A stretch of 64,000 nucleotides of DNA, from assembly GCA_963281255.1 (NCBI GenBank), contig OY725491.1:1922001-1986000 (forward strand), written 5' to 3'. This document shows positions 9,301 to 63,830 of this stretch, piece by piece (position 1 is the first letter of the stretch; each line of letters begins with the position of its first letter). The position numbers were made by a program, and so were the translations under genes. Source of the DNA: Aphrocallistes beatrix. Taxonomy: Eukaryota; Porifera; Hexactinellida; Sceptrulophora; Aphrocallistidae. The notes below the pieces were generated by a model. The model was not told the DNA's origin, searched no databases, and was given only the letters and a program-made list of their open reading frames with translations.

Positions 9301-9354
9301 GTGAACATTTCGCTTAGATCTTAGAACTTAAAACCATTATTCCATCTAATATAC

Positions 9355-9475
9355 TCCCCGGACCAATATTCCCTGAGAAAATTGGTCCCCCAGACCAATA
9401 TCCCATGGAAAAATGGTCCATTGCAGGACCAAAATTTTCAGGGAAGACCAATTTTTCGCGGACCAAAATTTTCGT
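9355..9475. repeat. Small GGTCC/GGACC minisatellite
   Basis: Four or five copies of the 'ggaccaatattccctgag' type of unit, in the same orientation as the block at 57190-57480. It is a third, short locus of this minisatellite family. Confidence 0.7.
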
Positions 9476-10743
9476 GACACCTATCATTATGGTTTATACG
9501 AGTAGTTACATCATTTTCAGCCCACAGCATCACATCATTTATTCAATTCTCTGTCAGTAATACTCGTATATGGGTCATTCCATGTGAAATCGACCAATTC
9601 GACCAACTGTTCCATGTCGAGCATCTCAGAAATTCTTGAAATTTTGCCTGTAAGTTTTGCATACTAGTGCATGATCATTTGTACAATATCAGCTTTCAAT
9701 ATCTTTTGGTTTTATAATTATAACCATTTCAAAATTTGACGATTTTCATAGTTCGGACACTCTTGTTTTAGAGGCCCCTTAATCAAATTTGACATATATC
9801 TTTCAATTCTTAACTTAGATGTCCAGTTTTTTTACTAATTGTTAATCATATAGTTACCTAATATCCTTAGCTAAATTGGGGATTTTTATCGCCTAGTTTA
9901 GATTTAATTATTATCTAAACATATATTTTCATCAATTTATCAAAAAAATTTCAAAATAATAATTCTTCATGTCTCCAATGGTTTAGAATTTGTCCATTTA
10001 ATTTTTAATTTTGCTCTATATATGTACAATCTTCCTGCTAAATTTCATGGCTTACATCAGTTCTTTACTGTTAAATTCCAACCTATTTTAAATCATTCCA
10101 AATTTTAATTGTTATCAAATTTTTCAATTTTCCTGATGCCTACGAATGAAGAACTCTGAAATAATTGATATTTGTTTCTATTTCTTAGTCCTACAATTAT
10201 ATAGATATACTTTCTCCAGTTGTGCGAATTGTAGTTGAAATTTGTGTGTGTTTTTATCACTTGTACTATATATTAGAAGTATTTGTACAAGTACCAATAA
10301 TCTTCTTTTTTCCAAATATTGTAAAACGATTATCTTCTTAATTTCTTTAGTTATCAATATGCCTAGCTTTCTATTGACAAAATAATGGATATATTGTTCT
10401 GTTTATACACATAGCATGGCAAGTTTATGTTGTTATCTAAAACATGCCAAATACGGTTTCTATTTCGGGATCGAATTCCAGCTGCACTACTTTGCAGATA
10501 ATGAATTAATTTTTATAGCAATCCAATTAATTTCATTGCTAAGTGAAATTTTTTAAATTCGCAAAGAAAATTTATCGAAGCATTGATAGCACAACTTTTG
10601 ACCTGGCTTTGTAGTAAACTCATTTGTTGTTGGGATGATTTTGTTTAGAGCGTCTGCTAATGAAGTATTCAGAGTTTTAAGGTATTTGTACTATTTTTTG
10701 TTGTGCAACTGCCATGGATCACAGCAACTAACTGCCAACTGGA

Positions 10744-16360: not shown

Positions 16361-16787
16361 ATGCCCAAATATTGTCCAGATCCTAACTGTGAATTTCACG
16401 ATCAATACAGAAGGGGCATTAAGGATGCAAATTATTGTGAAAAATGTGGCAATAAATTGGTACCAGAGAAACCGGATAAACCTATCCAGACTAATGCTAA
16501 TACTGAAGATCATATATCTGAGGAAGTTATTCAAGTAATTAACCCTAAAGAAACTAGATATTTTAATATCCATTTTAATAGTCTTCTATATAGTGAACAC
16601 TGCGATCAGATCGACAAAGTTTGTCTCCGAATCGGCCATATTTATTTCAGGAATTTTGAAGTATGCATTGTTCTATTCAATGAAGTTAGAAAAGTTACCA
16701 TACAAGCTAAAGATTATATACATATTCAGGGTACCTTAAATTTTCCCGCAACCCATATAGATGGAAATAGGATATACTTCCCTTATA
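16361..16787 (+). CDS. RNF213: RNF213-like exon 1, part a: N-terminal zinc motif and CBM20-like domain
   Basis: The start codon at 16361 is the first ATG in frame and puts the first cysteine five residues in, as in vertebrate RNF213. The zinc motif has a first Cys pair (YCPDPNC) and a second pair (YCEKCGNKL) about 25 residues later. A short polar linker follows, much shorter than the several-hundred-residue disordered region of the human protein. Then comes a beta-rich segment (about residues 63-142, from ETRYFNIHF to RIYFPY) matching the CBM20-like carbohydrate-binding domain. The reading frame runs straight into the mariner element at 16788 and soon stops there. Confidence 0.88.
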
Positions 16788-25700: not shown

Positions 25701-28700
25701 GTAGAAATTTTGGAGGAATTTCCAACGTCGATCCTGCAACAATATTTTTGGAAAGTGTCCATTTTGAAAACGAAGATCAAGATCCTTCTTTATTAGAACT
25801 AATCAAGGCTAACTTAGCTAGTATGTCATTTTCCTTTTATGGACAAACACGTTATCTTCTACTGATAACCGAGAACTTTTCAGCATTGAACATCATATTG
25901 CAATCACCAGATATGTGCCCAAAAGATCAGGAAAAAAATATGCACGTTATTTTTGGTTCTAGTTTCCCTAATGATAAAGATTATTCAGCCGTATGTAGCA
26001 GTATAAATGATATTAAATCTAGTATGGAGACAGGAAAAACAATTATTTTATTAAATCTTGAAAGTTTATATGAAGGATTATATGACGCCCTTAACCAATC
26101 AGACTCAATCTTTAATAAACAAAGGTATGTAGATCTTGGGTTGGGAACTCACAGAATGAAATGTCGTGTTCATGATACGTTCAAACTAATCGTAATTGCT
26201 GATAGAGAAACGGTACGAAATAAATTCCCAACACCGCTCATCAATCGTTTAGAGAAGCATTATATCACCATATCCAAAATACTCCCTGAGAAAGCTGTTA
26301 AAATATCAGTTCAGTTATCTGAATGGGCAAAAAACTTCTCATCATTGGATAAAAACATCCCAAACGGGTCTCAAAAGAACTATCTCTTCAATGAAAGAGA
26401 CTGCTTTATTGGCTTTAATGACGAAACAACTTCTTCGATTGTTTTGATGTAATTAAAAGTCAATATCCAGAATGGACAGCTCAGTGCAGCATCGAAATCA
26501 ATACAGAGGAAGTGCTAGAAGAGAGTAAGCTTATGCTGCTGAAAATAACTTCTATAGATGCAATTTTTCGTCTGAAAAACAGCTTTCTTTCCAAGGTTTC
26601 AGATACTATTGTTAGTCGATACTTTGGATTACACTTGGATAGTCTCGAAGCATACTTGAGATACTCTTTACTAAATATTGGTGACAAAAAACGGAAACAT
26701 CTAACGCTAGCTACAACACATTCAAGACTATTAATTGACTCAGATATAAATCAACTAAAAGAAAACCTAAAAGATAAGGTAAATGATATTCAATGTTTCT
26801 CTCTACATCAATTTCAAACCGAACAGCAATTTTGTAGAGAACTTTTAAGGTTTTTGGAAGGAAAGGTTGAGAGAGATTTGCAAACCAATAAGAAAATACT
26901 TCTAATTCAATGTGTCAAAGGAGTGGGAAATGCTTACTTGATTGCATGTGCTCGTCACAAATGTTTCGAAAAGTTGAATGATTGGATTCAAACAAATACT
27001 AAATCAAAAATGTGCATAAGCTTAGTATTCCTAATAAAAGTAAGTAGAGGATCACAGAAAAGTCAATTTGTTAGTTTTTGTGGGGGACATTGGGACACTA
27101 TTCACATTGATGATATTTGCAGTTTCTACAGAGAAGAATTACCTTCTATATCTGAGATGAAAAATCAAAATTTATATGAAATATTTTCGATACGACATAG
27201 CAGGCCAGAGGTGAGTAAATTTTATCTAAGGCTACTTAAAACACTTCTTAAATTGCAGTTTGTAGGTTTAAGATATATTTATTTATAGAATTTGGGAAGT
27301 GCAAATGGTTTTCAATTGAGTAAACTTAAACACTGTCTACAGTCAGCTGGTTCGAGATTAGATGACTCGAAAGGAAGTGAAAAGAGAACTCTAACTCGGA
27401 TTCATGACCTAAGTGACCTGATGGAAGATATGACATTTCTTGGTAAAGATAATTTATACGTTTTTCCGTTTGAATAAGGACAATAGATAATCCGTGAAAG
27501 TACTATACCTAATTTAGGTGATATTATTTAAAATTGGTCTGAATATTTAACTGTTTCAGATTTGAAAGAAAAATCCTAACTGATTTTTAACATACCGTAT
27601 TTCCCCGAATAAGCACTGGGGCTCGATTAAGCGTCGGACGCTGGGGATTTTGGTTCTCTGAACATCATATCAAACTAGTATTCTCAGTAGTGGCATAGAT
27701 GCTTTTTGAAACATTACATTATCCTTTTTTAATAGAACTAACATTCTCACTTGTGCCAAAAATAAAAGTGCCAGTCAATGTAGTAAACAAAAAACAGCGC
27801 CGGATCGAAATAGCGAATGAAAAAAATAAGCGCCGGGTCTAAAGGGTGCACGAAATAAATAAGTCTAAACTTTAAATCCGGCTACATACTTATGCATTCC
27901 AGAGTAATAGCATATTTTATCATAAACAATTGTCGCTATACCTTTTCAATAGTATATTATTGCAATTCTTGTGGAAAATATCAAATTTGTAGTTTACAAT
28001 GCAGTACTTACAAGTAAAAATAATAAATTACTTTGATAACCAATTCTAAATTATTTCCACATATCAAATTGATTCCGTGCATAAAGGTAAGATATAACAA
28101 TAATAAAATTGGGCTTACTCCGGTATACTTAAATAACTCTCTATTCATAGTACGTATATCCAGCACATTATTACGAGATTCTTTTCTTTTCCAAATTCGC
28201 TTTTAGTGTCCTTTCTATAGTACTTGTATTAATATATATATAAGAAAATCATAGAGACAAGCGCCAAGAGCTATTTCATAATCAATCGATTTTAGCTCTA
28301 AATCTAGTATTATCAAGGTATAGGAAACTCTGTTCCTGCAGTTTTTAATCGCTAAAGCTAAGCTCTAACACTTATTGTTTTGGAGTTTTGGTATTTAAAC
28401 CGACCGTTAAATAACTACTTGGAACCTGGTAAAGTGTTCGAGCAATCGAATTTCAGATAATAGAAGTTCCACTATCAATCTGTCGAGTGACCTTTTTAAG
28501 GCAGAGATATTTTTATATAATGCGTGTATTTTTTGATCAACATTATAAAATATACTGTTTTAATCTTATTTAGAAAAGCTATGCAATAGATTGAAGACAT
28601 TACTAAGAGAACAATATGAAAATTCATCTGATAGAGATTGTGGTTGGCTTCAAAAGATAGCTAACTGTCAAGATGTTATAAAATCTTCCGGAACATTCAG

Positions 28701-31700
28701 GAAAGCTGTCAATCTGAGCATTAGTAAGATCATAACGCCACTCTTTTCAGAGTTGATTGCATTACTTGATAGAGATGGGAATCTGATGCTAGGTATCCGT
28801 ACCAAGGATATACCGAATTGCATTACTAATCTATGGCATGCAATTTTTAATGATGAAAGTCTGTTGGTACTGAATTACAAAGATATTGTTTCTTTAGAAA
28901 CAATGTTGCCTCATACAAGAGTTGCAGTGTTAAATAATGGAGTCTGTGGAAATTTTTTTCAAGCAAGTTTTCCTTTCTCATGGATTATAAATCAAATGAC
29001 GTCTGATCTATTTAAAGAAACTACTCAAATGAATGGTTAGTTACCGATATACGTGGGTGTATTTGAGCCATCGAGGCTTGAGCTTATAACCTATCACAAG
29101 TACAGTGTGTTAAGAAATAGATTTCCTCTCAAACATCTGAAAATTTAGAAGCAAAAAATATGACAAAAATTTTATTAACTTTGGATATACGTATATGACT
29201 ATTAGCACTTAGTTTAAAACATTTTTTTAATTCAATTCAGCATTCTTACTATGACTTTTTCTAAAATTTAAAAATTGTCCTTTTCAAAGCTTGATTCAAT
29301 TGGTAAAAGCATGCTAGTTTTGTTCGTCGTTCAAAATAGAATTTGGCCTTTTCTTTATATTACTAGTATATCAGGGATTTTTAAAGGGTCTTAAATCAAG
29401 CGAATGAACAGGCCATGTAGTGGTGATCAATGCTTTTCGATCTAGTATGGGTTGATTTTTGATTTTACTAAAATCACCTACTAACTGGGAGCTCATTTGA
29501 CATCAATGCAACCTATTTTTGTATAATTCGCGAATGGATAAGTTAAACACAACAAAATTCAGTCATACTTTAGTATTTGAATATTCTCATACAAATATTT
29601 AAGATACTAGGAATTGTAAACAAATATAATCACATAAAGAATTAGTTTCAATCGTATGTTTAGAATAAAGGAAAACAATTTCTTAGCACACTGTATATTC
29701 TTACAATATGTTGGAAGCACACTCCCGCTTCCTCTGTGATGGGTTACAGTTTGGCGACTATACTATGTATGTATAGTGGCCATTTTCTGAAATGAGTACA
29801 AATTCCTTTTTAGATTTTTCTCCATAAAGCGGGTTTTTGAGAATATTTTGAGGGTGTAATTTAGATGAAAATTTAAATAAGATGTAGAATTTTATGGTTG
29901 AATTCAAGTTTAAGTTATACACAATTTTGATCCGACACCAAGTAAATAAATTCCTAAAAAAACATTGAGTAACTCCAGCGCCCGCAGGGCGACTCTGCGG
30001 ATACGGAGTGTCCGCAAGTCGAGCAGTGCAAGTAAGCGAGCGCCCTTGTAAATCATAATAGCTAGTTCTCTGAAAAGAGCTTTCAATGAATAAAAAAATA
30101 GTAGAAGTGAATAAGTTACCTTTTTTCTAACGAGTAAAACAAATTTAGCACCCTCTCTAGGGTGATTATTCGAGAGCCAGCTACTTTCCAAATATATGCG
30201 ATATGGTATATTAAATAGTCGAATTATGTGCGACATTCTAAGTAATGCTATCTCTATTTCCAAATTCTGATGCGAGTTTTCTGGAACAGCAATGTGGAGT
30301 AAGTTGAGGTGCTTTTGCAATAACAATAAAAACAAATCAAAAAGTGGAGAAAAACTAGGGTATCTCTATGATAATTTCTATTATTATTCAAAACTATATA
30401 CTTTATAGCGTATTCCATGACATTCTTTTGTAGAAAATCACGAGCTTTATCTAGTAACTACAGTAGAGAGCAGTAAACGAAGTCAATATCTTCGAGATTC
30501 ATCACAAAGTTACTTTTGGATGCAATTCGAAGAAATTTTCAATGAAACTTACATGGGGAAGCACATCAACAATACAATAATGGGAAATACCGAAGAACAG
30601 AATAACTTGCATTGTTATTTAAATGATTTTATTTGCATGAATATGGATGCTAGAAACCAATTTGAATTTAAGGTTAGTTTGCATAGTGCGAATGTTCTGC
30701 GTCAAGTGTGAATTGACACAACAAAGAATAATTTCGATGTTTTAAATGTTCACTTATTGCTGTGCAAAGTAGGAATTACTCATTGGTTAGTAGTAGTTAT
30801 AATTGCAATGTAGTCTACTAGGGATATGGGATTGCTTATGTATATAGAGTATGGAAATTGTTGTGCTTGTCAACTATGGATATTCAATATAACATGCGCG
30901 CTTCGCTTGCTTGCGCTCCGCGGCTGGTGGACAATTTGTATCCGCCTGAAGCGCCCTTTGGGTGCTTGTGGTTATATTGATCAACTATAAGGGAGATAAC
31001 ATCACTAAATGCGTTTGTTTTACTGTTATAATCGATATCGCACGAAAAATCACCTAATTTGTCAATATTTTAAATTTTGATGCGTAATGATGACGTTATA
31101 ACAGAGTGATGAGTCATAATTTTTGGATGATTGTTGTATCATATGTAAGATAAATAAATATACACATTATATTAAAATTTCAGCCTTCTAAAATAGCTGA
31201 ATTATGATTGAAAAACTGAAATTTCTAATTCTAAAAAGTTGACAATGACGTCATAATTTCATGTCGAGTCAACATTTTCGTCTGAGCTCAGAACTTAGTG
31301 GATCCATAGCCAAAAGACTCTCAAATGCCAAAATAAGCTTTCTGTGCTTTGCAGTTTCTTCAATAAATTCGTTATATATATATATAGGTATTTTAATATC
31401 TTAGATTTGCATATTTATATGGATTTCAATGGGAAAGTATCAATGAAGTACAGCAAAGTTCAAAATTTAGAGTGGGACAAAAGATTCATTTAACGTAGAA
31501 TTTTATATAGAATATTATCAAATTTGAACTTGGTTCATTTTGTAAAACTGGTTGTCAACAAGAGTTTTTAAAATTGTATTTTCATTCTTAATAGGTTTTT
31601 GAATATATATTACTGAAGTACATTGATGACTTACCCAAAAGTGCTGAAATTACAAATATTTCACCAAATGTTCTAACGATACCGAAGATCCAAGTCGTTT

Positions 31701-34700
31701 TTGAGTACTCAAAGGATTTAACTAGATTGATGCAGCAAGCTTTTAATTTAAGAAAAGAATTAGGAAAAAACATATGGAATACAATTTTAAAATTGAAAAA
31801 AACTAAAAATAAAGACCTGAACCATTTGGAATTTGTTTTAGTTGAAGAGATTTGTTCCATATGTTCGCACAAGAATGAACTAATAAAGAAGGAAGAGCTT
31901 TCTGAGAAATATGTGAGTCAGATTGGGCAATTTAACATTCTTGTAGAGAAGGCACTCTCCTTAAACCTTGATGGACAAGATTATATGAAAGATCAACAAC
32001 TAAGATTAACGTATGTTTATTTTAGATCATTTTTACAAATAATCTTCATTACAATTATATTCATGTGTATTTATCCATTTACGATGCGAAGTCTTTAGAT
32101 AGTACTCACGATTTAGAATAGATCATTTTGGACTGAATTTATGAAAACGATTGATGGAACAAATAAAGCTTTGAAATTGTTAATACGGCTATGGTTAAAT
32201 ACTCAGCCCTTATATATTGATTCAATTTTTAAGGTGAAATAAAGTGAAAGTCTCTAATGAGTGATTATTTGAACTTAATTTATCTTTTATTTGGAGGTAT
32301 ATATACATCGCGATTATGACGCAGTCATTCATAACGTTCTAGCTCTAGATCCAAACTTTTTAGTGCAGCTCCTAGCATAAGAGATTCCTTATGTCATGAT
32401 CGGCTTGCGACGTCCGTTTGCTCGCTCTTGGAAATTCTAATATACCAATTGCATCAAATTTGGACTATATATTTCTTACATGGTAGAATTCGTCAAAAGG
32501 TGTGTAAATATGTATACGTATAAAGGTGTGAAAATATAGGCATGACCCTTTCCAATGTTATACACTAGTAACATTAGTTATACGATGATTTCTATTGTGA
32601 GAGTGAAGTCATATATATTGTATAGAAAAGGTGTAAAATTTGTTTCCATTTTTGCAGAGGTGTGAAAATTTCGCTTAGATCTTCGAGTTTAATCGCATAT
32701 TCATCATTTAGCACCTACGTGCCAATTTTAATATTGCTATGACTTGTCATTTCTTTAATCAATTCAGACCAACAAAAAGAAATCCTAGCGTTTTAATATA
32801 TAAGATTCGATAACCATCATTATCACTAAACAATTGACATCTGCATCGAAAGTCAATAATTTCCTTCTTTGTACGGCTTTTCTTAGATTACATGTAGTAT
32901 ATAGTATATAACCAGTGGTGTTTTGGGGGGGGGGGCGCGGGGGGGCGCTGCCCCCCACTTTTTTACATTGTATCATTATCACTATGTTGACTAAAAACCT
33001 AAATATACTCGCAAACGCTTGTGATGAATTGGCGCGAAGCACAAAGTGGTAATCAGGTTACAGGAAGGAAATTCAAATCCCGTATGAGATTTGATAAGAA
33101 TTGATGTACAATGATATTTGACCACCTTAAGTTTAAAAAATTTTCTGGGGGGTTACCCCCCAGACCCCCCATTACCTGCGCTCGCTCCGCTCGCTTTTGG
33201 CCCCCCCTGAGTCTAAACCCTGTATCCGCCCCTGCCATCAGGGGATTAAAGTTTCACGAAAAAACATATAACTTTTTTACGGGAAGGAATCGCCCCCCAC
33301 TTCTATTTTTGGCAAAACACCGCTGTATATAACCCAAGCAAAAACAAACACCCACATGGTTGATATCTTTACTCTAACTAGGCGAATTTATCCCCTTATT
33401 TGGCATATTTATTTCTTTTTTTTCATAATGACGTAATTCTATACGATTTTAATGAATTGAATTCGAAATAATTTTCTAACATCCTGTATATTATCTATCA
33501 TTTATCATGTATATAATATAATATAATATAATATAATATAATATAATATAATATAATATAATATAATATAATATAATATAATATCATATAATATAATATC
33601 ATATCATATCAATAATATCACGTCATATCTATTTTTTAGAGAAACTATTTTGTAAATACTTATTACCTAATGGATTTTATCTAATCCTTTTTATAGAAAT
33701 AAATGGAATCGTATTAAAGTGATCCAGTTGTTTATTTCCTCCTGTATTCTTGGTTTTGAACTGAAAATGAAAGAAAAAACCGTTCATAAGATGATACAGG
33801 TAAGATAAAAAGTCTTGGCATGTACTTTTACATAGAAAGATTTCCCAGCTGTACTTATTTTATCATCGTGAAATTCTAAGAAGTAAGCTTGCCTCCGAAT
33901 ATTTAAAGTGTTAATTAAAATCCGCTATGCGATTTGGATAGGAATATTTTTCTAAGGGAGAATTTGAGCAGGGCGAGTTTCAAAGGGGAACAGAAAAATT
34001 TTTGATCGGTGATACGATACTGCTTGAGGTCATCCCACTTTTACAATCGTTCGACTCAATTATTAAGAACGCTGAATCCTAGATATTTTCATGTCGACTC
34101 AAATGTTGGAAGATAGCTTTGCTTGCAACATTGTTGAAAGGTGTATATTAGAATGTCTGATGCATTTTGGTTGAACGCAACTGATTTTGAATTGTGTATA
34201 TTGAATGTTTGCATGGAACATGTTTCCCAAAAATATAACAGTGTTCTATTTTCGTTCAACTTTTCTTAGTACTTAAGTAGAACATGATTTTCATTTTGAT
34301 GTATTAAATATGTAGTGCATCAGACCTCCTTTTTTTAAATTTGGATTAATTTCTATAATAAAATATCAGCTTTCTGTCACAAAATTTTGAATTTTTGCTG
34401 TTTGATCAAGGAATGGTAAAATCATAATCCCATATTAAACTCGAATAACTAAAACTTTCCATAAATTGCTATACTTATGTTTTTACCTATTATTTGTGAA
34501 AACTGGAACTGAAACCAACTCTGGAAGCAAACCAGAACTGTGATGTAACAAAAATGTATATTTTAGAAACTGATTTATATTTTGGTATTTTACTGTTTAT
34601 TCGCTTGCTTCCGCTGCGCGGCTGGCGGACACTTCGTGTCCGCGGGAGGCTCCCTTCGGTCGCCTGGAGGTGACATTGGTTAATTATAAGGGAGATATCA

Positions 34701-43700: not shown

Positions 43701-46700
43701 CAGCACCAGACGTCAATCACATTTAACAAAATGAAATGCTTATCTTTTTAGAATATTGAAGAATGTGCAGATTTCTCTTCGGTTCAAGTTATTTGTGTAC
43801 TTGAAGTTTTGACAAAGAATCTCAAGAGCATTGAAAGAGGGTAAGAAGATAGTTTGGAAATTCATCTTAATCTCCATAACTGGCATTGTTAAAGATAATG
43901 TTTTTTTTCTTAGGACAATCAGAGAGAAGTATAAGATACAAGCAACAAGATTCTTTATAAATATTTTGGTTGATGTTACTTTTAAATCACCTGCAAATCT
44001 AAAGTTGAATTCTGATCTCGTTGTCCAGTTGTTGAGTTATGTGAAATTTGATAAAAAGCGAACTAATCTAATGATTGAACAAGGAAATATTAACCTTTTT
44101 CAGAAAGATGGACTAGATCCGTCTCCTGCTTTTGGAGTTTTCTTATTGCAGTTATTGATTAGACACAGGTATTAAGAATAAATTACATTGGCATATTAAT
44201 TAACACTATACAAGCGCGCTTCGCTTGCTTGCGCTGCGCGGCTGGCGAACACTTTGTGTCCGCCGGAGGCGCCCTTTGGGCTCCTGTGGTCATCATTGAT
44301 TAATTATATAGGACATCTCCAAATACGTTTGTCCTAATGTCATAATCGATATCGCACGAAAAATCACCAAATTTGTCAATTTTTAAAATTTTGATGCGTA
44401 ATGATGACGCCATAACAAAGTGATGAGTCAAAATTTTTTGATGATAGTTATATCCTATGTGAGCTATATTAATATACTCATTCATGGCCTACTTAACTCA
44501 GGCCTCACAGTAGAATGTGAAATTTGGACCAGGGATGCGATCGAAGCCGAACAATGAAATACCAACTTTTCAATATTTCGTTCTAATTTTAGTACATAAT
44601 GATTTGAGTGATAGCCTTGAGCGTTCACATTTGATCTAACCCTCATTAATTTCTATTTTAAATGTCTCCATCATACTATACTATATTGAGTATTGAAGTG
44701 ATAATATCATATATTTCATTTAAATAATTGAAATAAACAAGACAATACTATTACAATCACAATTAATAATGTATTAAAACAGTTTTACAATACATAAACT
44801 TTATTTCGATCATTTTAGCGCTGTTGTTGTCTCCGATTAACAAATTGAGGGTTGAGTTACTGGCATGTGAGAAAGGTTGGCTGCGCTTACAGCTGAACTA
44901 AATAAAGAAAAAAGTTAAACACATACTATATTAAAATATAAGGATATTAAGAGTTAAATTTTTCCAATTTACGTTTTTCAATTCCTCTACATACTACCAT
45001 GGAGTTATAATTTTTACTTTATTACTAAGTAGCTATCATACTTGTACAATTTCCTGAAACAAATAATAACCTACGTAGAATCGAAAAACGAGGAATATTG
45101 CAGGAAGGACATGTATTTTCCCAGACATCACAATCATTGCTATCTACTATTGAGTTTAAAGCAAGCTCGACTAGAATTTTCCTCGCTGGTCCTTCATGGT
45201 AACAGACGAACAATGCAGGACCATTTTTTCTGAAGGCTAGAGACCATGATAACAATTACAGTTTTCGTAGGATTATCTGGACATATATTGGATCCTATAA
45301 TTTTGCTTCCCTTGTATGATATACAGTAGAACTCGGTTAGTACGTACCCCTCCAGGAAGCGGAAAAAAAACACGTGCTATCCGTAAGTACGTACTAACCG
45401 AGTTGATATTACATAGGAATCTATTTAATAAATGTGGTTCAGAGAAATAAGTATGTACTAAACCGAAGTACGTTGTATCCCGAGTACGTACTAACTGAGT
45501 TCTACTGTACCGGGTTTTACGTGAAATTCATCCATTTGAAGGATGACATGTTTTTGTTAATTCGAAAAAGAACACGTTGCTTGCCTCAGGAATGGAAAGA
45601 ATTCATTTTCTAGCCCAAATGAATAGTACAATTTTTACAAAGTATTGAAGTGAGGAAGTGATAGGCAAGGCATGTGCTGGAGATACTTAGTATAACAAGC
45701 TGGATGTGTTATAAGAGATAATACTTGTTTATGCTGTATCTACGTCTATTTTGGGAACAAGACTGTTTTCTAATTGGCATTGAATGAATTGGAGTCGACA
45801 AATTTCTGGATGCTCAGATGTTTCCACATCCGAACTGGTATGCATAATATCAATGGCTTGTTGGATAATGAACATTCGCTGATGATATTTGGGAAGCAGT
45901 AGATTCAGAATTCTTAGATGGCTCACATCGATAAGGCGCACTAGAAATTTCATTCACAAGTGATTCAAGCTGTCGAATATGATATCACTTAGGCAACTGA
46001 GTAAATGTTGAAAACACATTTTTACAAAAGGCATTGATAGAAGATCGAACGTTACTAGTACCAAATAAACAACTAGTAAACTATAATTCTCTAAACTAGG
46101 ACGCATAAAAATCAAGCTATGTTCATCTGGGTACCATAATGACCAGGTTTTAGGTAAAGAAATAAGTGATAACTCACCTTGCATTTCCTGGAAGCAGCTA
46201 ACCTTGAATCCCTCTTTTTCTTCTGCATCAGATCTCAGGCTAAGTGTCAATGCTTGATTGAGGAACTCGTCATCTTTTGAGTCGAGAGACCGACGACTTC
46301 GCTTAGCTGCAGATTGGGAGTAGTGTGAGGGACATCTTGGTAGAAAGACTGGTACAGCATCATCCTTCAGCTTTGGGTTCACTCTAGGGATTTCGCGAAA
46401 AGTATTTTCTCCGTTGGGAACCTTGTGCGAGTACTCGATATCTTCAGTCCTAAAGTGCTTCACGCAGACGTAAACAGCCTTTAACTCGTCTATATCATCT
46501 CTACGGAGTGCCAGAACCAAAGCGTGTTTAAGTTGATCTGGTTTCTGCGGCATCTTGAAAAGAGTCACGCGATCTTCAGACTTGTAGTTACTCTTGCAAC
46601 CAGGTGCCGAGCAACTGGTCGACATTTCAAATGTAAGTACGTAGCTAGTGCAAAAAAGAAATGTATGTAAATATTTATTATTATGAATAAATTATATATG

Positions 46701-49700
46701 ACTGCTATTTTTACAAATTAAAGTATATACGAACATGATTGTATGAAAATGTTATGGGTAATTGTGAATAGATAAACATTAATAAAATATTGTGGTTAAT
46801 TAACAATTACCGGCTTCGACTGTATCCCTGGTACAATATTTCCATTCTACTGTGAGGCCTGAGTTAAGTAGGCCATGACTCATTCTTTTGAAATTTCAGC
46901 CTTCTATCACTTAAAATGGTTGAGTTATGGTCGAAAAACTGAAACTTCTAATTATAAAAGGTGACAATGACGTTATAATTCCATGATGAATTGACATTTT
47001 CTCAGAACTTAGTGGACCCATAGCCAAAGGACACTAACATGCCAAAAATCAGTTCTCTGTGACTGGTAAATCAATTCGTAGCGAACGTCCACCTGAAGCG
47101 TCCCGCTGACGCTCGGTGAAATTAAAGTGATTCAGCGGTTATTACTTGGCTTTTCGTAAGGTTTCAGTCTGATCTTTACGCAAGTTGTTGTCATAAATAT
47201 TTGCGATTAGATCTTCAAACTAATCATAAACTTATCATTTGACACCTACATGCCACTTTTTACAAATGTATAGTATGAGAGCATCAATCAGCACGCAGCC
47301 CAAGAAATCGATCCGACAAAACCTGTCCCAGAACGATCAATGTGAGTCATTCTGGGACAGACCCACTTAAAATTTGTAAATTTATTTATGATAAATATCC
47401 ATTTATGTAGTTTATCTTGTTTATATTTCACTTAGAAAAGAAGTAATCGGGAAACCTATCAACAAACTTTTGAAAGAAATTCAAATTTTTCCTGATCCAA
47501 ACGTAATGAAGAATATACTTTCAATAATTGTCTCATCAATCGAGGTAAGTTATTAACAATTATCAGCACCGTAGTGGCGACAAACATATTCATAGCTGGA
47601 TAATTATAAACGCTACCTTACCTTACTATCGTAGACAAACATACATGTAAGTATATATAATGAATTCAAAATTGGATTTATGAAAATATCAATATTTATC
47701 ACCCATAGGTGCTTCTGAATTTGATTATATTCCTTGGTGTACACAGAGTGACTGTGAACACGAAGTGTTCTCTACGCTAGAGCGCGTTGTACGGAAAACA
47801 TTTGAACAATTGTTTTCCATTTTTGTGCAAAAGTGTGAAAATTTCATTTAGATCTTATAATTTTATCCTAGTCTCATCATTTAACAATTACATACCAAAT
47901 TTCATACATATACGACCTTCCAATTCTTCAATCAATTTAGACAGGCAAAAAATTCTAGCGTTTTAATATATACAAGCGCGCTTCGCTTGCTTGCGCTGCG
48001 CGGCTGGCGGACACTTCGTGCCCGCCGGAGGCTCCCTTCGATCGCCTGGAGGTGACATTGGTTAATTATAAGGGAGATATCATCTCTAAATATGTCCATC
48101 TTAGTTTAAAAATTTTAATTTTTCCTTATTGGTGCATGGATAAGTGGTCTTCAAACTTTTTCTAGCATACCCCCAACAGTTTAACTCACGCTATTCCTAT
48201 GTGTCGAGAAATATAATTTTTGAGAGCCGGCTTTTCACTCCCGTGAAAAGCCTAGCGTATCCCAGTTTAGTATACGTACTGGCATGGATGATGTGCTTTA
48301 AAACTTTAAATTGTTTTTTCTTTAGGATTCACTTCATCGTCAGTTTATTGAGCTAGATTCTTTTAATGATAAAATCAAATTTGTTCAAAAATACTTGAAA
48401 GAGGTACCTTCTCAACCTCCTAGAAAACCTAAAATTTCTTATGAATTGCTAGAGTGTATTGGTACCCTGAGATTTTTGTCTTTGTGTATATCTCCTTGGA
48501 TAATACAGTATTATGAACTACGAACACAGAATCAAAAAGATCTAGACCAAACTTTTAGACAAGAGATACATGCATTAATTAATGAATTCAAAGACATCTG
48601 TTTGAAGCAAGGTTTTGACGAACTCCACACATTCTTATTAAAGACATTATATAATGAATTGAGAGAAGATCTGAAGTATGACATTTTGAATAAAACACAC
48701 GAGTGCTTCTGGATTTTTGAATCAATGACCAATATAAATGAGGTTGGTATTTTAGTTCTTTTTTTCTCTAATTAAGCATGTATTTATAATCTTGAGAATG
48801 TGTGAATTTAGTGTATATTACATTTGGTAAAAGAGAGTATAGAGTTCTATATCTGTTTAGCACCGGAACATTATTTTTCGTAGATAAGGACTTAAAATAA
48901 ATTTTTCATTCCACCGATCCCATTTTTTATCTACCGTCTAGGAAATTTATACATCTATATTAGACTTCTACGTAGACTTCTAGTAAGGATTGTAGGTGTT
49001 CAATCTCGAGTCCTGGAAGTTGGATTTATCGTGTTTAATTGATATCTCGTAATCCGCTCTAGTAAGACATGGGAAACGTATTATTGTTAAATAGAAAGTT
49101 TCATTATGAAGTCCATTGATCTTGATGTTTCATTACTTCAACTACGTGTGGAATGTAAGTTATGTGGTTTTCGCACCTGTTTTTCACAAATTTAAGATAA
49201 ACTATGGCGATATTCTGTTATTACATTCCATCGTTGCTATGGAAACATTTTTGTACAATTTGAGCCTATCTATTTGTTTCATGTACGTAAAATTTTAAAA
49301 GAATTCCACTACGCACTATGGTTTAATTATCAATTAGGAAATACTAGGATGATTGAGAACTAAGAAACTATTCTACCCTACAATACTTCACAGGCGAAAG
49401 CATACACCATTTGGGTTAATACACTAATAATTGCACTGTCTACTCATTGATATATCTCTAATAATTACTCCTCATTGATAGTTACCGATACAAAATCATT
49501 TTTATTATTATGTTTTTATCCCATTATTCTATACTTTAGATACTTGTTATTCCTGACTACTTTCTTATATATGGGGAAGCTTACATTCAGATGCAAAGTA
49601 TACTTAAAAGTGTTTGTTCAACGCAAAAGAAGGACACAGCACTACAGTACTTCCAAAATAAAAATGTAAGATTGATTTATTGAATTAATCAACCGCCGTT

Positions 49701-52700
49701 TTCCCTACCGCCCACTCAAGCCTTTTAAATTTTATACGCACCTACTTTTGATAATGGAAATTAAAATTCACAAATTAATCAGTAGGGAATTAATTTTTTT
49801 ACTACCCTTCCACTTTTCCTCTTTTTCGGGATCGCGTAAATAAATTAATTGTAAATAAACAAAATATAATTAGCAAAATATACAATTATATCAATACAAA
49901 AGCTGTACTATCAGTTAATATATACGCAAAATTTCATCCACAAACAGGTATCCTTACAATTAAAACTCGGAAGCGTAAAAAATACGTATTATCCGTAAGT
50001 ACGAATTCTACTAAAGCAGGGGTGCTCAACTTTTAAATCTACGGGCCACTTTAAAAATTAGGCTCCGCTTTACGGGCCACAAATCGTAGATCGCCTCTGG
50101 CTTTAGTTTAATCAATTTTCAAGCTATACTATTTGACCTCATACAGGATGGCTCATAAGTTCTGTGACATACTTCATTAGGTATAAATTTCTTGCACTCA
50201 AACAATCTTAGCTATTATGGTCTTTAGAGATTGTAATTCGGATATTCTCAATGATTTTAAAAGATTTTTCCAGTCAAAGACCTGGAACTATGTTTTGTAT
50301 GGCGATTTTTATGGGGAAAAGTTGTGTCCTAGCACGCAGCGAAAATCGAGAACTGCTTCTGTAAAAAATACTTGTACGTATCTTCATAATCGATGTTCTA
50401 TGACGATTTAGCACCAGCTACCTTTTATTCACCATGGAAATATTTCATAAATCCATTGAATTCATTTTCAGAAACGAGAGAAAGTTATTACTTGTATTTC
50501 ACAAGATCAAATTAGGTACATTTTGCAAAATCACCCAAAATTTTTTTTCACATCACCAAAAAATCTGATCCAAATGGTTCTCAATATCTACTGACATAAA
50601 CATCTTACACTTCTACAAATTTACAGTGTTCGAGGCAAATATGAGGGCCAATTTTTCCTAGAATTTGAAGACTCTGGAAAGTTGCTTTTCACTAACTTAT
50701 TCTAGGCACATACGTAGATACTACCTAAATTTAGATACTACCTAAATTTCCCTAGGGGGTAAACAACCTAATTTTGTCCTCGCTCATCATCGCCCCTACA
50801 TCACATAACGATGTTGCTACGCCATTGAGAGTGATGATGTAATAATTGATAGAATTCGTAAATACAAACTATAGTTACCAAATACTGTATCCATACTAGG
50901 AACATTGATGCATTTGTAGAGTATCTCTAATTATTTCTATATAGTGTTTAGAAAAAAACAATTATTATCTGACAATTGAAGCACGTCAATCTACTGTATA
51001 TACATGTAGATGAATAATGAAAACAGGCGAATTATCGGCGGGCCACAGCGAATGGTCTCGCGGGCCACCGTTTGAGGACCCTTGTACTAAAGTATATTAG
51101 TGCCATTCCGCCATTTCGAGTAGGTAAATGCAAAGAGGCGAAATTGCAACAATTGGCTTTGCTCATCTCTTCATTAATTATAGCTCAATTGATGCACATT
51201 TCTTATTAATTTTTTATTCTTACCAATAATATTTTTACAGGAACTATCAAAACAAGAGATGGAATGCCTTCTTTATTCGTTTTTTCAAATAGCGATAGAG
51301 ACATTTACTGCACCGGAACAAGGGAAAACATTGGAAGAGGTTGGAAAAATAATGTTACAGTAAAACTTTGGATAAGACATAGGCGTTAGGAATTTCAACA
51401 ATTGTAAAATATTAATACGGTCGACTCCGCTTATTAAGGTCACATTTGTCAGATGACATTTTGCCCCGATCAAGCATAGAACCCTATTAACCAAAATACT
51501 TTGTATTAACTTCTATGTGTGAGAGCTATCCATTAAACAGTGACCTTATAAGCTAGTCGACTGTATTTGAAATTCTTTAAAAATATTATCTTTAGAAATT
51601 TGATCCATTGAGAGATTTCCTCACGGATATACATAATACTGATACAGACCTACTTGAACTCGCAGTACAGATTTCTTCAAACAATCTTGGCAAAGGGATT
51701 CTCACCTCTTTAGTTCTATCAACAACATCGAATCGTAGTAATATTTTGTTAGTCAGACTTATCTACCATGTAGCAATCATGTTATTAAGCAGGAACTATA
51801 GTAAATTATTTTCACCCATTGCAATGATATATCAAGATCCACTTAGTTTGAAAGACAAATTGTTTCCTACGATGATGGTTATTGAGATTCTGGAGATACA
51901 TGGAACAGGGAATTGGTATAAATGTCCAAATGGACATCCATATTTCATTGGAGAAGTAAGTTTAAATTATTTTTTCAAAACTTGATTTGTAGTATCATAC
52001 AATTGAAAATCGATTTAAAATGTGATGGTTTGTTCATATCGATGTACATTGCCTGGTCAAAAGTATTTGACACTTCAAGTTTTACATCATAATAGTACTA
52101 AAATGGAACTATCTTTGGAGGACAATTCATTTAAACTATCACAATTACTGAAATCTGTGATTAAATTCGATACAAGTATCTACGCTCGGTAATAATTCAG
52201 GTTAACCTTTTATAGATCAATTCTTCCAAATGCAATTCATATATCGCTTGTACACACCCTAATTCACTTGCTATCATCATGTATAATGGTTATAACTGGC
52301 AAAGCCATCCGTATTTCCTTTCTTTGTGATATTCTCGACCAGATGTGTTTAAATGAACTATTAGTGAATCATCATTAAATTATTTATAAAATTTGACTCC
52401 AAAATTAAAGCCATATTTTTTGTCCCATATATTGTCGTAATTCCGAAGATCTACTCTATTCATAGTTTACTTTTTAGTGTGGTCGTCCTTATGCAACATC
52501 AAAGTGTTTAGATTGTGGAAAGACTATTGGGGGCTTATATCATCTTCTTGAAGCTGATAATACCCAACTCGATAGAAGCAAATATAAACTAGTAAAACCG
52601 GGCTATATATTGGGAATGCCCAAAGATTCCTACCTAACTGGCGAAAGGTAATTCTATTATCAACTTAAAAATACAATTTATCTTTTGGTATGAATTTCTA

Positions 52701-55700
52701 TATTTTAGATCTCTTTCTCCTGCTGCTCTAAAAGTATTACGAGCTCTAATTCACTCCACCTTCATCTGGTTAACTTGTTCCAAGCAGTGTACTAGGGAGA
52801 ATATGTCCTATCTGGTTAATTCAGAACTATGTACTTCTACTGATTTCCCCAGATTTTTTTATCAACATCTTGACAATGACATCAGAGATCTAGCCAAACT
52901 GACAGGGAAAGGTTTTGAAGAAGCAATATTTATGGTTCATTTAATTATCAAATCTATCATGCAAGATGTAGGGATGCCATGTGAGTAGTTTTTAGTACAT
53001 ATTTAGTAAATCTCGGAAATATATATGTGATACCAAGTGTAAAGGTTGATGATTAATCAAATTCAAAAATTGATTTTTAGTTTTCAGATTATACAACGTA
53101 TATTAAACAACTTATAAAATACCTGGTAAATTTTTTACTGCAACTTATAGTATAGAACCTGCCATATTGGAATAGACAGTGCACGACGTCCAAACGTCTA
53201 TTCAAGAGCTCTTGAAAAATCTACTGGTCCGATTTTTACCAGAGAATCTTTTCTCATCTCTTTTCAATTCTTCCACGACTGAAATTTTGACAACTATAGA
53301 TTTAATAGCGAAATCTTGATCGATTCAGAACAAAGTTGTTGTAGTTTTTCTTATATTGGTTTATTTGTGCTCTGCGGCTGACAAAAATTATCCACATTAA
53401 TAATCCTCCGGTTGATTTAGGTTCAACTTCAGTTCAACTCACAAACGATACTTCAAGAGATAAATGGGAAAAGGAATTTGATAGGAAATGTATCCAACCT
53501 ACTCTCAACCCTATAAACACCGAAGTACAGATTCAGATGAAGCAAGTGTTAAATAAGAAGATAGGGACAAACAATCCTTTGATGAGGTGAGGGAAATCTA
53601 AAATTATGCAATATTGCATATTCAGCTTTCTATCACCTAAAATGACTGAGTTAAAGTCGAAAAAAATTCTAATTATAAAAATGGTGACAATGACGTCATT
53701 ATTCCATGATCGACATTTTCGTCTGAGCTCAGAACTTAGTAGAACCATTGCCAAAAACTCCCACATCCTAAAAATCAGCTTTATGTGTGCTTGGAAGTTT
53801 CAGCAATTAATTCGTTATATATATGCAGTTACCAGACAAAAGTATTCGATTATCACATAAACCTCCAAACAGATAGTATTAAAGTGGATCTGTTAATAAA
53901 GGAATACGTGCTTAAACTGTTAGAAATACTCTATTTTTGATTTCTAAAACCTAATCTACACATTATAATTACTCATAATTGAGATTCTCAACTCAATTAC
54001 TAACTCCTAAGGTTATAAATATCTATCTACCTTTGATACTTGATGCTACTTGTCCCGAGTCATTATATATGGTAGCGATTAGTGACACAAAGTGGCATAG
54101 GTTGATGATTTTCTACATGAGAATTAGTATTTGTATTGAAAGTTAAAAAAATTAGTAATTCGGATGTTCAGTTTACGAATCTGAAATCAAAAATAGAATA
54201 CCTCTTCTGTTTGAGTACATATTCCACTGTGAATATATATATTTTACTTGTATTGGGCTACAGTACACCCTCGATAGTCCGAATACCCAAAATATAATGA
54301 TTCGCCTCTATGCTTTAAATAAACGTTTATAAACTTAAATCAATAAGATTGAGAAACCACGATAAATAAGGAATCATAGCGAGATAATATCCTTAATATT
54401 TTAACAATACAAATTTATTATAATTAATGCCCTATTAAATTAGTGTTATTTTACTAATCGAAACAAATTCACTAATCCGACCGATTTTTTCGATCATTTG
54501 AACAGAGCTGTTCGGATTAGCGAAGGTGTACTGTATTTGTATGGAGGTTTTCGTGGTGGTCGAATACTTTTGTACTGATAGTATATATGCAAACGTGTTT
54601 CGCTTTGATTAATGTATATATATATATATAAGCGAGCTTCACTTGCTAGCGCTGCGCGGCTGGCGGACACTTTGCGTCCGCCGGAGGCGCCCTTTGGAAG
54701 CCTGTGGTCACCATTGATTAATTATATGGAAGATAACATCTCTAAATACGTCTGCCCTACTGTTATAATCGATATCGCACGAAAAATCCTCAAAATTATC
54801 AATTTTTAAAATTTAGATGAGTAATGATGACGTCATAACAAAATGATAAGTCATCATTTTTTGATGATAGTTGTATCATATGTGGTATGTTAGTATACAT
54901 ATTATTTTAAAATTTCAGCCTTCTATCTCCTATAATGGCTGAGTTATGCTCGAATAACTGTATTGCTTAACTTTTAAAAATGTGGCAATGACGTCATAAT
55001 TCCATGATGAGTCGACATTTTGCTCTGAGCTCAGAACTTACTGGAGCCATAGCCAAAAGACTCCCACATGCCAAAAATCATTTTCTATTAATGGGAGGGA
55101 AGCGATAGATGCATTGAGGGCATCACAGAATTGGTTTGGGTGGTCTGGGTGATGTTTTCTCAGATTTTTTGCAGTTTTGATGGAAGAAACTTCCACACCT
55201 GCCAAAGCAGGTCAGAGCAACTTCTGAGGTGTTACCAGATGCGATGGTAGGATCTCGGTTGACGTAGAACACGCTTAGTGGCGCCCGTTTGTCCGATATA
55301 GACCGTTTTTCCGACATATGGGTGGTGGAGTACGTAAACCATACGAAGGTGGGCACATGGTTCAAAGGGAAAAGGAGTGAGGGTAGCGAAACGCTGATCA
55401 TATGCGATGCACACTCTGCAGCGTGCTTTGCAGGTTGTGACTCTATGATTGAGGAATCTTTGTGGGAAGAAGAACTGTTGAATAGTGATGAGGGTGGGAT
55501 AGGGAGTATGGGCACAAGATGAAAATCATCCTGTTTAGCGATAGGGGCTAGTTGCTTTTTAGTAGGTGTGTTCTGCGAGTAATCTTATATATTAAAATGC
55601 TAGGATTTTATTTCTTTTAATGTGTTTGTCCGAATTGATTGAAGAATTGGGAAGTCATAGAGGTGTGAAAATTGGCATGTAGGTGTCAAATGATATGACT

Positions 55701-58700: not shown

Positions 58701-61700
58701 TATGTTAATATACACATTCTATTAAAATTTCAGCCTTCATTGCCCTAAAAATGGCTGAGTTATGGTCGAAAAACTGAAATTTCTAATTATAAAAAATGTG
58801 ACAATGACGTCATAATTCCATGATGAGCCGACATATTTTTTTTAAGATCAGTCGATACGCTCTAATGACACCTTATGTGTGACTTCCTATCCAACAATAG
58901 TACATTTGACATGTCTAACTCTAACCAATCTCGAATTATTAACGGGATTACCATATATGGGAAGGTGTTGAAACCGCAGAAACTCAAAAACCACAAATAT
59001 TTCAAGTATTCCAATATGACCAATGAAATCAGCATATGCTACTTCCTAATCAACAATAATACATATATCACCAAAAATGTGATGCCAAATGTACCAAACG
59101 TAACTCATCGATATTAATTTTCAGCCTACGCTAATTTTACCGTAAAATGAAGTTGAAAGTCCGTGTATTTAAGAAGTCCGTGCCTTTTTAGAATCAGAAA
59201 TACAGTGAAACCTCCATAATCCAACATTCAATGGGAGACGAAAAAAATGTCGGATTATCGAATAACCTCCATAATCCGACATTTGTGGAAAATCAGCAAA
59301 ATGTCGGATTATAGAGGTAAAAACCTCCACAATCCGACAATATTTGACAGACGAATAATTTGTCGGATTATGGAGGTAAAATAACCTCCATAATCCGACA
59401 TCATTTGATAGACGAAAAAATTGTCGGATTATACAGGTCGAATTTGCATGACTGGAAAATCATTAAATTGTCGGATTCCCGAATAGCGAGGTGTCGGATT
59501 ATAGAGGTTGTTTTCTATAGTAAAACGATCCATGAACAGAAATAATGTTGGTTTAGAGAAATGTCGGATTACAGAGGTGTCGGATTACGGAGGTTCCACT
59601 GTATCAGTATTTCGACTATAACCAGCCATTTTAAGTGATAGAAGGGTGAAATTTTAATAGAATGTGCATAATTACATACCTCATATACGATATAACTATT
59701 GTCAAAAAGTGATGATTCATCACTCTGTTATGACGTCATCATTACGCATCAAAATTTTAAAAATTGGCAATTAGGTTATTTTTTGTGCGATGTCGATTAT
59801 AGTAACAGTAGGACAGATGTATTTAGAGATGTTATTTGCCTTATAGTTGGTTGATCAATGTGACCTCAGGTGCCCAAAGGGCCCCTCCGGTGGACACAAA
59901 GTGTTCTCCAGCCGCGCAGCGCAAGCGATTGTAAACTCTAAATCTGCACCCCAGAAAACGCCATGCCAAACGTTGGAAGCTCGTCTCGAGCATATTTTTC
60001 AAAATTCGTAAAAAGGTGTGAAAATATGTATATAAAGGTGTAAAAATATGCACATAATCTTTTTTTATTGCTATACACTATTATATATTTAAGATAACAA
60101 GCATAAATTGTGGCTTTGAAGTATTAATAACAATGGTAATCGATTGTGTCGGTAATCCGTGACTTTTTTGGACGTTTGTTCGACCTCGCGCCGATGTGGT
60201 CTTTCAAATCCCTAAAAACAGTAGTAGGCGAAAAAATGTAGCCTTTTCTTCCCAGTTTCTTCGCGATTTTCCTCGTTGACTTGAGTCGTTTGTCCTGAGA
60301 TTTAGCAATAACAATTTTGCTCACACGGTCTAAAACCCGCGGACTTCCAGACCGCCCCTTGGTTTCCAGTGAAACTCCCGAATTATTGAATTGTGATAAT
60401 ATTCGAACTGAACGATATCCAACGTTTAGCCTCTTGGTTACCTCTTTTTTAGGTACTCCTCATTCTATCATCCCGATTGCCTTAGAACGCATGGCTAACC
60501 CATAGTCAGACAAATTCATTTCAAAAAATGTAACAAAAAGAGAAAATATTTTTAAAAAGTAACAGGAAGTAATATCAACGAAATAATGGTTGAAAAGAGA
60601 GAGATTGCAATACAGCAATAAAGCAGCAAAATGAGAAATAGTGATGCTCATGGTCAATTAGAAACACAACTATTGATGTTTAAAAATTAGACCCACGAAT
60701 TATGAAACATCCAGTACATGGGTCCAAAAATAGGGCAGAAATATGCTTTCAACTGTTTTCATGGGGTTTTTATGGGTATAGATTTCAAATTTCTTTTATC
60801 AAATACCTAATTTACCTTCAGCAGGTCTGAATTAATTATTCACTTTGGGTATTGAGCGACATTTTTTTTTTGTTAGTGAATTATATAGGTATCAACAGTT
60901 TTTTTGATATCCCCAGGCGTCCGCAGGGCTTCTCTGCGGACATGCAGTATCCGCCAGCTGCAAAGCGCAAGCAAGTGAAATGCGTTTGTGTATTTTATTA
61001 CATTTCTGAGAACTTTCATCTAGGAGGGGCAGCGCAAATAAATTAAGAGGGATTTACATTTTACTTCTATACTTCATGAAATGGAATTAAACCAGAAGCC
61101 AATCATTGATTCTATCCGAAAAGCACTACTAATCTTTTCTTCGACTTTATTCTCCTAGAGGGTATTACCTCATTTTGCTTACAGCTTGCAAATACTTTGT
61201 GTCCATTTAAGCTTCCCTTTGGACACCTTTTTAAATCACATTATTTGCGGATTCTCTAAAAATAGATTTACATGAATATTTGACTTCCTGAAATATGAAA
61301 TTCAAATTTAATTAGAAAATAGCATATGAGAATAATCTACCAATTAGTAACTACATGTAGTATAATGTATGTCTCATTTTGTATTTAGGTTAGTTTATGA
61401 AAACGATGAAAACAGACTAGACACCAAGTTGCCGAACTTTTGGTGCTGCAGAAATTTGATAAGTCTGGAGCACTTCTCTCAGAACTTTAATACAGCTGAC
61501 TTAACAAGAAAAGGGGGTTTCCCGCTGATCAACAAACTTCTTAGAGAGGGATCAAGTTTGTTTGCCACTCGATACCTGCCAGATATTGTTAAACTACAGC
61601 TGCGATTGGGAAACAGATTTGGTCAATGCCTCGATCGAAGTAAAATAACCAATATGCGAATCGAAGAATTTGAGCAGCAAATAAATGGAGGTAGTAAACA

Positions 61701-63151: not shown

Positions 63152-63830
63152 TATCCTTACTATTAAAACTCGATTAATCTCTCTCTCTCTCTATATATAT
63201 ATATAAAGCTGATTTTTTGCATGTCGGAGTCTTTTGGCTATGGCTCCACTAGGTTCTGAGCTCAGAGCAAAATGTCGACTCATCATGGAATTATGACGTC
63301 ATTGTCACATTTTTAAAGTTAGGCAACACAGTTGTTCGAGCATAACTCATCNNNNNNNNNNNNNNNNNNNNNNNNNNNNNNNNNNNNNNNNNNNNNNNNN
63401 NNNNNNNNNNNNNNNNNNNNNNNNNNNNNNNNNNNNNNNNNNNNNNNNNNNNNNNNNNNNNNNNNNNNNNNNNNNNNNNNNNNNNNNNNNNNNNNNNNNN
63501 NNNNNNNNNNNNNNNNNNNNNNNNNNNNNNNNNNNNNNNNNNNNNNNNNNNTTATGCCCTAAAATGGCTGAGTTATGGTCGAAAAACTGAAATTTCTAAT
63601 TATAAAAAATGTGACAATGACGTCATAATTCCATGATGAGCCGACATTTTCGTCTGAGCTCAGAATTTACTGGAGCCATAGCCAAAAGACTTCCACATAC
63701 CAAAAATCAGCCTTCTGGGCTTGACAGTTTCTTCAATCAATTCGTTACAGATATATATATACTATATATACTATATATACGTATGTTATATATATTATAT
63801 AGATTAATCGAGTTTTAATAGTAAAGATAT
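63152..63830. repeat. Two inverted HINE copies with an assembly gap between
   Basis: 63156-63351 is a plus-oriented copy start (TCCTTACTATTAAAACTCG, a CT/TA microsatellite, body). 63552-63830 is the opposite orientation, ending 'cgagttttaatagtaaagat'. The two would fold on each other. Confidence 0.85.
63352..63551. other. Assembly gap, 200 N
   Basis: Exactly 200 undetermined bases, a conventional placeholder length, so the true size is unknown. It falls at the centre of an inverted repeat. Any open frame across it is meaningless. Confidence 0.99.

What the first reader, a model, noticed from the sequence alone, without database searches (positions are those of the whole stretch)
43752..44168. 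RNF213 homologue without a RING finger but with an intact RZ finger
Exon 8 matches the helix directly before the RING, and exon 9 matches the segment directly after it. They join in phase across a 73-bp intron that cannot hold the roughly 45-residue RING. The RZ finger (CPNGHP at 51923 and CGRP...CLDC at 52478) is complete. In vertebrates ubiquitin transfer by RNF213 has been reported not to need the RING. This gene would be a natural RING-less version, supporting the idea that RZ is the ancestral catalytic unit.
Basis: partly seen in the sequence, partly recalled or inferred. Interest (0 to 1): 0.72.

Follow-up and report, generated by a model that had tools for sequence, protein, structure and literature searches.

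The report
RING-less RNF213 gene in expanded family
This animal gene is a relative of the giant immune ubiquitin ligase RNF213 that has lost the RING finger the protein is named after but kept the RZ finger that does the chemistry in mammals, and other RNF213-like genes in the same genome lost it too, though this copy may itself be damaged.

Summary
The gene is an RNF213 homologue. Exon 8 (43752-43840) and exon 9 (43914-44168) join in phase across a 73-bp intron, no RING was found in the window, and the RZ finger is complete, including its Cys/His dyad by spacing. The host genome (unnamed, 100.5 Mb) holds at least 25 RNF213-type AAA cores. Two (contig C16) carry an RNF213-type C3HC4 RING exactly at the exon 8/9 junction; in the copy read in full it is a 192-bp phase 2-2 exon, so its loss keeps the frame. 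The window's clade lacks it at 5 of 5 loci where both flanking exons were found. A third clade (15 loci) shows neither RING nor RZ. Cautions on this copy: a reading-frame break near 26,440; an in-frame stop at the start of the last exon found, unless a nearby acceptor is used; and no CTD exon (the E2 dock of mouse RNF213) found on its contig, although a 200-N gap at 63352-63551 may hide it. The clade is a natural RING-less RNF213 lineage; whether this copy works is open.

The parts
18044..26452 (+). long open frame: N-arm and first part of the AAA core; Walker A GETGCGKT at 23726 and GKPGSSKS at 24998
   Evidence: 2802-aa ORF; 1087 bits to solved RNF213 chains; AAA_5 E 7e-7; motifs
26437..27210 (+). 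continuation of the AAA part in another frame; the frame break lies at about 26,440
   Evidence: two sister genes read through in one frame
27289..27442 (+). exon of the post-core region
   Evidence: AG/GT; aligned to RNF213
28574..29035 (+). exon of the post-core region
   Evidence: AG/GT; aligned to RNF213
30434..30672 (+). exon of the post-core region
   Evidence: AG/GT; aligned to RNF213
31595..32010 (+). E3-module exon 5 (ends in phase 2)
   Evidence: 41% identity to sister gene C6a
33697..33799 (+). exon 7; joins exon 5 directly in phase 2
   Evidence: E 5e-8 to sister gene
43752..43840 (+). exon 8, helix directly before the RING position (ends in phase 2)
43841..43913 (+). 73-bp intron at the place where the C16 paralogues carry the RING exon
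43914..44168 (+). exon 9, segment directly after the RING position
   Evidence: aligned with paralogues and human RNF213 post-RING
47436..47544 (+). exon 9b
   Evidence: counterparts in paralogues
48326..48742 (+). exon 10, E3 module
   Evidence: counterparts in L042 and C6a
51596..51955 (+). exon with first half of the RZ finger, CPNGHP at 51923
   Evidence: PF20173 33.2 bits
52478..52647 (+). exon with second half of the RZ finger: nucleophile Cys (CGRP), Cys ligands (CLDC), base His
   Evidence: PF20173 37.3 bits
52709..52980 (+). post-RZ exon
   Evidence: aligned to RNF213
53421..53586 (+). E3-module exon
   Evidence: aligned to RNF213
61393..61692 (+). pre-CTD exon (ends approximate)
   Evidence: E 3e-14 to the C16 gene
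62629..62864 (+). last exon found; alignment to the sister gene starts further upstream and crosses an in-frame TAA just before 62629
   Evidence: E 5e-23 to sister gene C6_3183k
63352..63551 (.). 200-N assembly gap after the last exon found; the CTD may be hidden here

Best explanation
The gene belongs to a clade of RNF213 paralogues that lost the RING, most simply by clean loss of one symmetric (phase 2-2) exon between exons 8 and 9, leaving the AAA core, the E3 shell and the RZ finger. Shown by sequence: the junction, its phase, RING-bearing paralogues with the RING as a removable exon, and an RZ finger with zinc ligands, nucleophile Cys and base His at the mammalian spacing. Inferred: by analogy with mouse and human RNF213 it would take ubiquitin from a Cys-reactive E2 onto the RZ cysteine and pass it to substrate without a RING, under control of the AAA core. 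For this copy that also needs an unbroken frame and a CTD; neither could be shown.
For: RING absent in the window. C16 paralogues hold a C3HC4 RING at this junction (2 of 2), in the copy read in full a 192-bp phase 2-2 exon; HMMER aligns RING plus post-RING segment to human RNF213 (E 2.9e-8 for the whole 411-aa query). Phase-2 exon 8/9 joins without a RING at 5 of 5 loci of the window's clade where both exons were found: window, C6:3215k, C4:1467k, C6:1520k, C6:2954k. The clade has support 95/95. RZ complete. In mouse RNF213 the RING is dispensable for auto- and LPS ubiquitination and Cys4462/His4483 of RZ are the catalytic dyad (passages of PMC7311170; PMC12075652).
Against: Frame break near 26,440 that two sister genes lack. 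In-frame TAA at the start of the last exon found, unless a nearby downstream acceptor is used. No CTD exon on contig C4 among 72 matches genome-wide; W5097A, E5108R or loss of the CTD abolishes activity in mouse (PMC12075652). The four other loci of the clade keep the RZ Cys but not the base His at +9 (Y, Y, G, R). RING loss is not wholly neutral in vertebrates: without a working RING, ubiquitylation of the Toxoplasma vacuole was partially impaired, and other papers report RING activity in vitro (PMC11549300). No transcripts or activity data.
Confidence: 0.75

Rival explanations
1. The window copy is a decaying pseudogene of a RING-less clade; it no longer makes a working ligase.
For: Frame break near 26,440; in-frame TAA at the start of the last exon found; no CTD exon found on C4.
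Against: A 2802-codon frame is open; ten successive E3-module exons have AG/GT borders and read 785 codons without a stop; it alone of five clade loci keeps the base His at +9. The frame break sits in a T run, the TAA may lie in an intron, and the CTD could lie in the 200-N gap.
Confidence: 0.4
2. The RING was absent in the family ancestor and was gained separately in vertebrates and on C16.
For: Of the own genes whose junction was examined only the two C16 genes show a RING.
Against: The C16 RING lies at the same place and aligns with human RNF213 through RING and post-RING segment; on the tree C16 groups with another RING-less clade (99/98), so a position-matched gain inside the radiation plus one in vertebrates would be needed (the program warns of long branches at that join).
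Confidence: 0.05
3. A RING exon exists but is unrecognised: far away, split, or missing from the assembly.
For: Profile searches were insensitive: PF13923 listed neither C16 RING, PF13920 one of two. Introns of 10 kb (window) and 4.4 kb (C6:2954k) lie near.
Against: At the junction itself the introns are 73, 101, 87, about 350 and about 4,400 bp; regex found both C16 RINGs and none in these.
Confidence: 0.07

Closest known systems
RNF213 (mysterin), mouse and human
   Same: AAA core with two Walker A motifs, order of E3-module segments, RZ finger with zinc ligands, nucleophile Cys and base His
   Different: no RING between the pre- and post-RING segments; a frame break; CTD not found; one of at least 25 RNF213-type cores in its genome
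RNF213 delta-RING mutants made in the laboratory (PMC7311170, PMC11549300, PMC12440826; passages)
   Same: RING removed, RZ kept
   Different: here it is natural, shared by a clade, and clean at an exon border
ZNFX1, the other RZ-finger protein (named in PMC12075652, passages)
   Same: RZ finger with Cys/His dyad; this genome has a further RZ at C7:4962256 in a 2031-aa frame, taken to be ZNFX1 by inference only
   Different: the window gene has the RNF213 AAA core and E3 module

Membership tests
RNF213 family (AAA-E3) | RNF213-type AAA core with Walker A motifs | tested here: met
   530 bits to solved RNF213 over the 680-aa core; GETGCGKT and GKPGSSKS; that these are AAA3 and AAA4 is inferred
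RNF213 family (AAA-E3) | RZ finger with C, H, C, C zinc ligands plus catalytic Cys and His | tested here: met
   PF20173 79.7 bits; spacing as human C4505/H4509/C4516/C4525/C4528/H4537
RNF213 family (AAA-E3) | C3HC4 RING inside the E3 module | tested here: not met
RNF213 family (AAA-E3) | C-terminal domain that docks the E2 | tested here: inconclusive
   no CTD exon on contig C4 (0 of 72 matches); 200-N gap at 63352-63551
RNF213 family (AAA-E3) | uninterrupted reading frame | tested here: not met
   frame break near 26,440, absent from two sister genes; assembly fault not excluded
RING-type E3 ligases | RING finger | tested here: not met
RZ-type transthiolating E3 | RZ-dependent ubiquitin transfer | not testable with these tools
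   needs biochemistry

The most novel reading that the evidence does not exclude
In this animal RNF213 has radiated into at least 25 genes in which the two ligase fingers are modular and were shed stepwise: RING plus RZ (2 genes), RZ without RING (the window's clade), and neither (15 loci that keep the AAA core, the exons flanking RZ and a CTD). If so, the RING is naturally dispensable, and the AAA scaffold has a selected function that needs neither known ligase finger. (Raised from 0.55 to 0.6 after RZ absence was read directly at 15 of 15 loci; stops in some of these genes speak against.)
Probability: 0.6. Interest if true: 0.78.

Novelty: new variant of a known kind. Interest (0 to 1): 0.6.

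Why it matters
What the RING of RNF213 is for is an open question: it is dispensable for transfer in vitro and on bacteria, yet disease mutations fall in it, a bacterial effector binds it, and the authors of that work argue from its persistence that it has some important function (PMC7311170, PMC11549300, PMC12440826; passages). A genome holding RING-bearing, RING-less and finger-less paralogues side by side is a natural experiment on what the RING, and even the RZ, adds. The seven searches run in the held library (listings only, four of them capped at 15 or 20 rows of 45 to 613 papers) listed no paper on natural RING-less RNF213.

Tried and rejected
Exon '6' (32122-32233) was first modelled and dropped: it breaks the phase, and sister gene C6a joins exon 5 to exon 7 directly. 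A RING-like tblastn hit in intron 7 (34152-34223) was rejected (stops, wrong side of exon 8, 10 of 200 shuffles as high). A 12-aa RZ-like match in L044 and L081 (E about 0.2) was judged chance. A tiny intron at the frame break was considered by eye only; none of normal size that restored the frame was seen. Pfam RING searches of the own genome list no RING in C4:1922001-1986000, but they are weak negatives: PF13923 (150 of 153 candidates scored) listed neither C16 RING and PF13920 (150 of 186 scored) one of two. NCBIfam gave nothing of use. No structure was predicted: spliced proteins are not contiguous translations of the DNA. The organism was not identified.

Full report
What it is. The window lies in an unnamed 100.5-Mb genome (G000:C4:1922001-1986000). 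The ORF at 18044-26452 matches solved human and mouse RNF213 with 1087 bits, the core segment 23711-25750 with 530 bits; the exons after it (E 3e-31) and the RZ-to-pre-CTD exons (E 9e-40) follow the RNF213 order. It is an RNF213 homologue.

The observation. Exon 8 is 43752-43840 and exon 9 is 43914-44168; the 73-bp intron cannot hold a RING, and the join is in phase 2. Both vanished when paralogues were used: a spurious exon 6 was dropped (exon 5 joins exon 7, as in C6a) and exon 9b (47436-47544) was added. The ten exons from 31595 to 53586 then have AG/GT at every border and read 785 codons without a stop. No RING-like pattern was found on either strand of the window; the shorter core motif is absent from the + frames of 26001-52000. 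The same patterns find both C16 RINGs. Exon 8 resembles pre-RING exons, not RING or RING-tail sequence.

RZ. CPNGHP at 51923, CGRP at 52478. Zinc ligands, nucleophile Cys and base His stand at the spacing given for human RNF213 (C4505, H4509, C4516, C4525, C4528, H4537; passages of PMC11549300) and mouse (C4451, H4455, C4462, C4471, C4474, H4483; passages of PMC12075652). Of the five loci of this clade only the window gene has His at +9 from the last ligand; the others have Tyr, Tyr, Gly and Arg. The C16 gene read, two of three C19 copies and the further RZ on C7 have His there; the third C19 copy has it one place later. In mouse, His4483Ala lowers activity.

The family. A search with the core finds 25 RNF213-type cores, a lower bound: C4 1, C6 9, C16 2, C19 3, C1 10; three weaker hits on C15 (32-34% identity) were left out of this count. 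The two C16 genes have a RING, CIKCKRHPADVIALACLHYRCRNC...CPDC, between the counterparts of exons 8 and 9. In the copy read in full the RING exon is 192 bp and symmetric, phase 2-2. phmmer aligns this RING with its post-RING segment to human RNF213. PF13920 matches this RING exon at E 2e-5 but 24.7 bits, below its cut-off of 27, and the other copy at 28.7 bits.

RING loss in the window's clade. At all 5 loci where both flanking exons were found, exon 8 joins exon 9 in phase 2 and no RING was found between: window (73 bp), C6:3215k (101 bp), C4:1467k (87 bp), C6:1520k (about 350 bp), C6:2954k (about 4.4 kb). C6_3106k has a core but no exon-9 match. C4:1467k has an E3 part but no core match nearby.

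A third clade. Fifteen loci (10 on C1, 5 on C6) have an exon-9 counterpart; no RING pattern lies in the 1.5 kb upstream in 15 of 15. An exon-8-like exon was located in 10 of 15 at E below 0.001; all 10 C1 loci, and none of the 5 on C6 by this search, show a short exon at the RING place that lacks the RING ligand set (phase 2-2 read in L025). Whether it is a decayed RING is not known. RZ is gone too. A genome search at E up to 10 gave 20 matches, none in these loci. The DNA between the exons flanking RZ was then read at 15 of 15 loci: pre- and post-RZ exons were found at each, the best match to any RZ half had E 0.015, and isolated motif hits occurred but no locus showed both halves. In the same call three positive controls gave E 7e-11 or better for an RZ half; two of them had their own sequence among the queries. 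One search found 25 CTD-exon matches: C16 2, C1 10, C6 9, C19 4. Against a selected function: some of these genes carry in-frame stops (two TAA in the C6:602k core, one in C1:8274k; one in the pre-RZ exon of L083) and some core frames are short, so part of the clade may be pseudogenes.

C19. Three genes carry RZ. In one (C19_2364k) a weak exon-9 counterpart (E 0.033) was found and no RING in 7.8 kb upstream, but exon 8 was not located. RING status of C19 is open.

Tree. A maximum-likelihood tree of 19 cores (window, 17 of the 24 other own cores with 7 of the finger-less clade left out, and human) gives the window's clade 95/95, C16 100/100, C19 100/100, the finger-less clade 100/100, and C16 with the finger-less clade 99/98. 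The program warns that long branches meet at that last join, and the order among the main groups is unresolved. With RING in human and C16, the simplest reading is loss in the window's clade and again in the finger-less clade. This speaks against RZ alone being ancestral.

Cautions on this copy. The reading frame changes near 26,440 inside a T run; two sister genes read through in one frame. The alignment of the last exon found with sister C6_3183k crosses an in-frame TAA; a splice acceptor just downstream of it would avoid it (sequence). CTD exons were not found on C4: 0 of 72 matches. The last exon found ends at a good donor and a 200-N gap follows at 63352-63551, so the CTD may be hidden there; it may also be lost. 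In mouse, CTD loss or W5097A abolishes activity (PMC12075652). C6_1581k is the better exemplar: RING absent, RZ ligands and Cys present, CTD matches present, though its base His is not at +9.

Mechanism. From mouse and human work: RZ Cys accepts ubiquitin from the E2, His acts as base, the CTD docks the E2, the AAA core gates activity by ATP, and the RING is dispensable for auto- and LPS ubiquitination (passages of PMC7311170; PMC12075652), with partial impairment on the Toxoplasma vacuole (PMC11549300). That the RING-less clade works the same way is inference. One reason a lineage might shed the RING is that it can be a handle for antagonists: Shigella IpaH1.4 binds the RNF213 RING and RNF213 without it escapes degradation (passages of PMC12440826). 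For this animal that is speculation.

Literature. RNF213 is reported expanded in symbiotic bivalves (passages of PMC9993606). The seven searches that ran (listings seen, four of them capped) showed no report of natural RING loss. The library lacks preprints and most subscription papers.

Noticed in passing
window 17026-17980 (-): mariner-type transposase fragments (family recalled from the letters, no profile run) just upstream of the 18044 ORF.
   Followed up: no
window 45954-46691 (-): ORF of 245 aa that looks like a THAP-domain protein (recalled, not tested), inside the intron between exons 9 and 9b.
   Followed up: no
window 16361-16801 (+): ORF starting MPKYCPDPNCEFH...CEKCG, a possible N-terminal zinc ribbon of the same protein; only sub-threshold Pfam matches (E 0.13).
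   Followed up: partly
L011 (C4:1465730-1468990), L007, and C6:3106265: C4:1.467 Mb holds an E3-module part (exons 7-9, RZ) with no core or CTD match on its contig nearby, while C6:3106k has a core and C6:3148k a CTD but no exon-9 match between: a split gene, translocation or assembly misjoin.
   Followed up: partly
C1 8.08-8.47 Mb and five loci on C6: array of 10 RNF213-like genes on C1 plus five relatives on C6 without detectable RING or RZ but with AAA core and CTD matches; some carry in-frame stops.
   Followed up: partly
L071 (C6:3222601-3226600): one in-frame TAG in the first CTD exon of sister gene C6_3183k, absent from the copies at C6:3148k and C6:2942k.
   Followed up: partly
window 3000-3431, 9318-9560, 56112-57592: repeats encoding PGPIFPEKNGPPDQFS-like units on both strands, seemingly a dispersed repeat family.
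   Followed up: no
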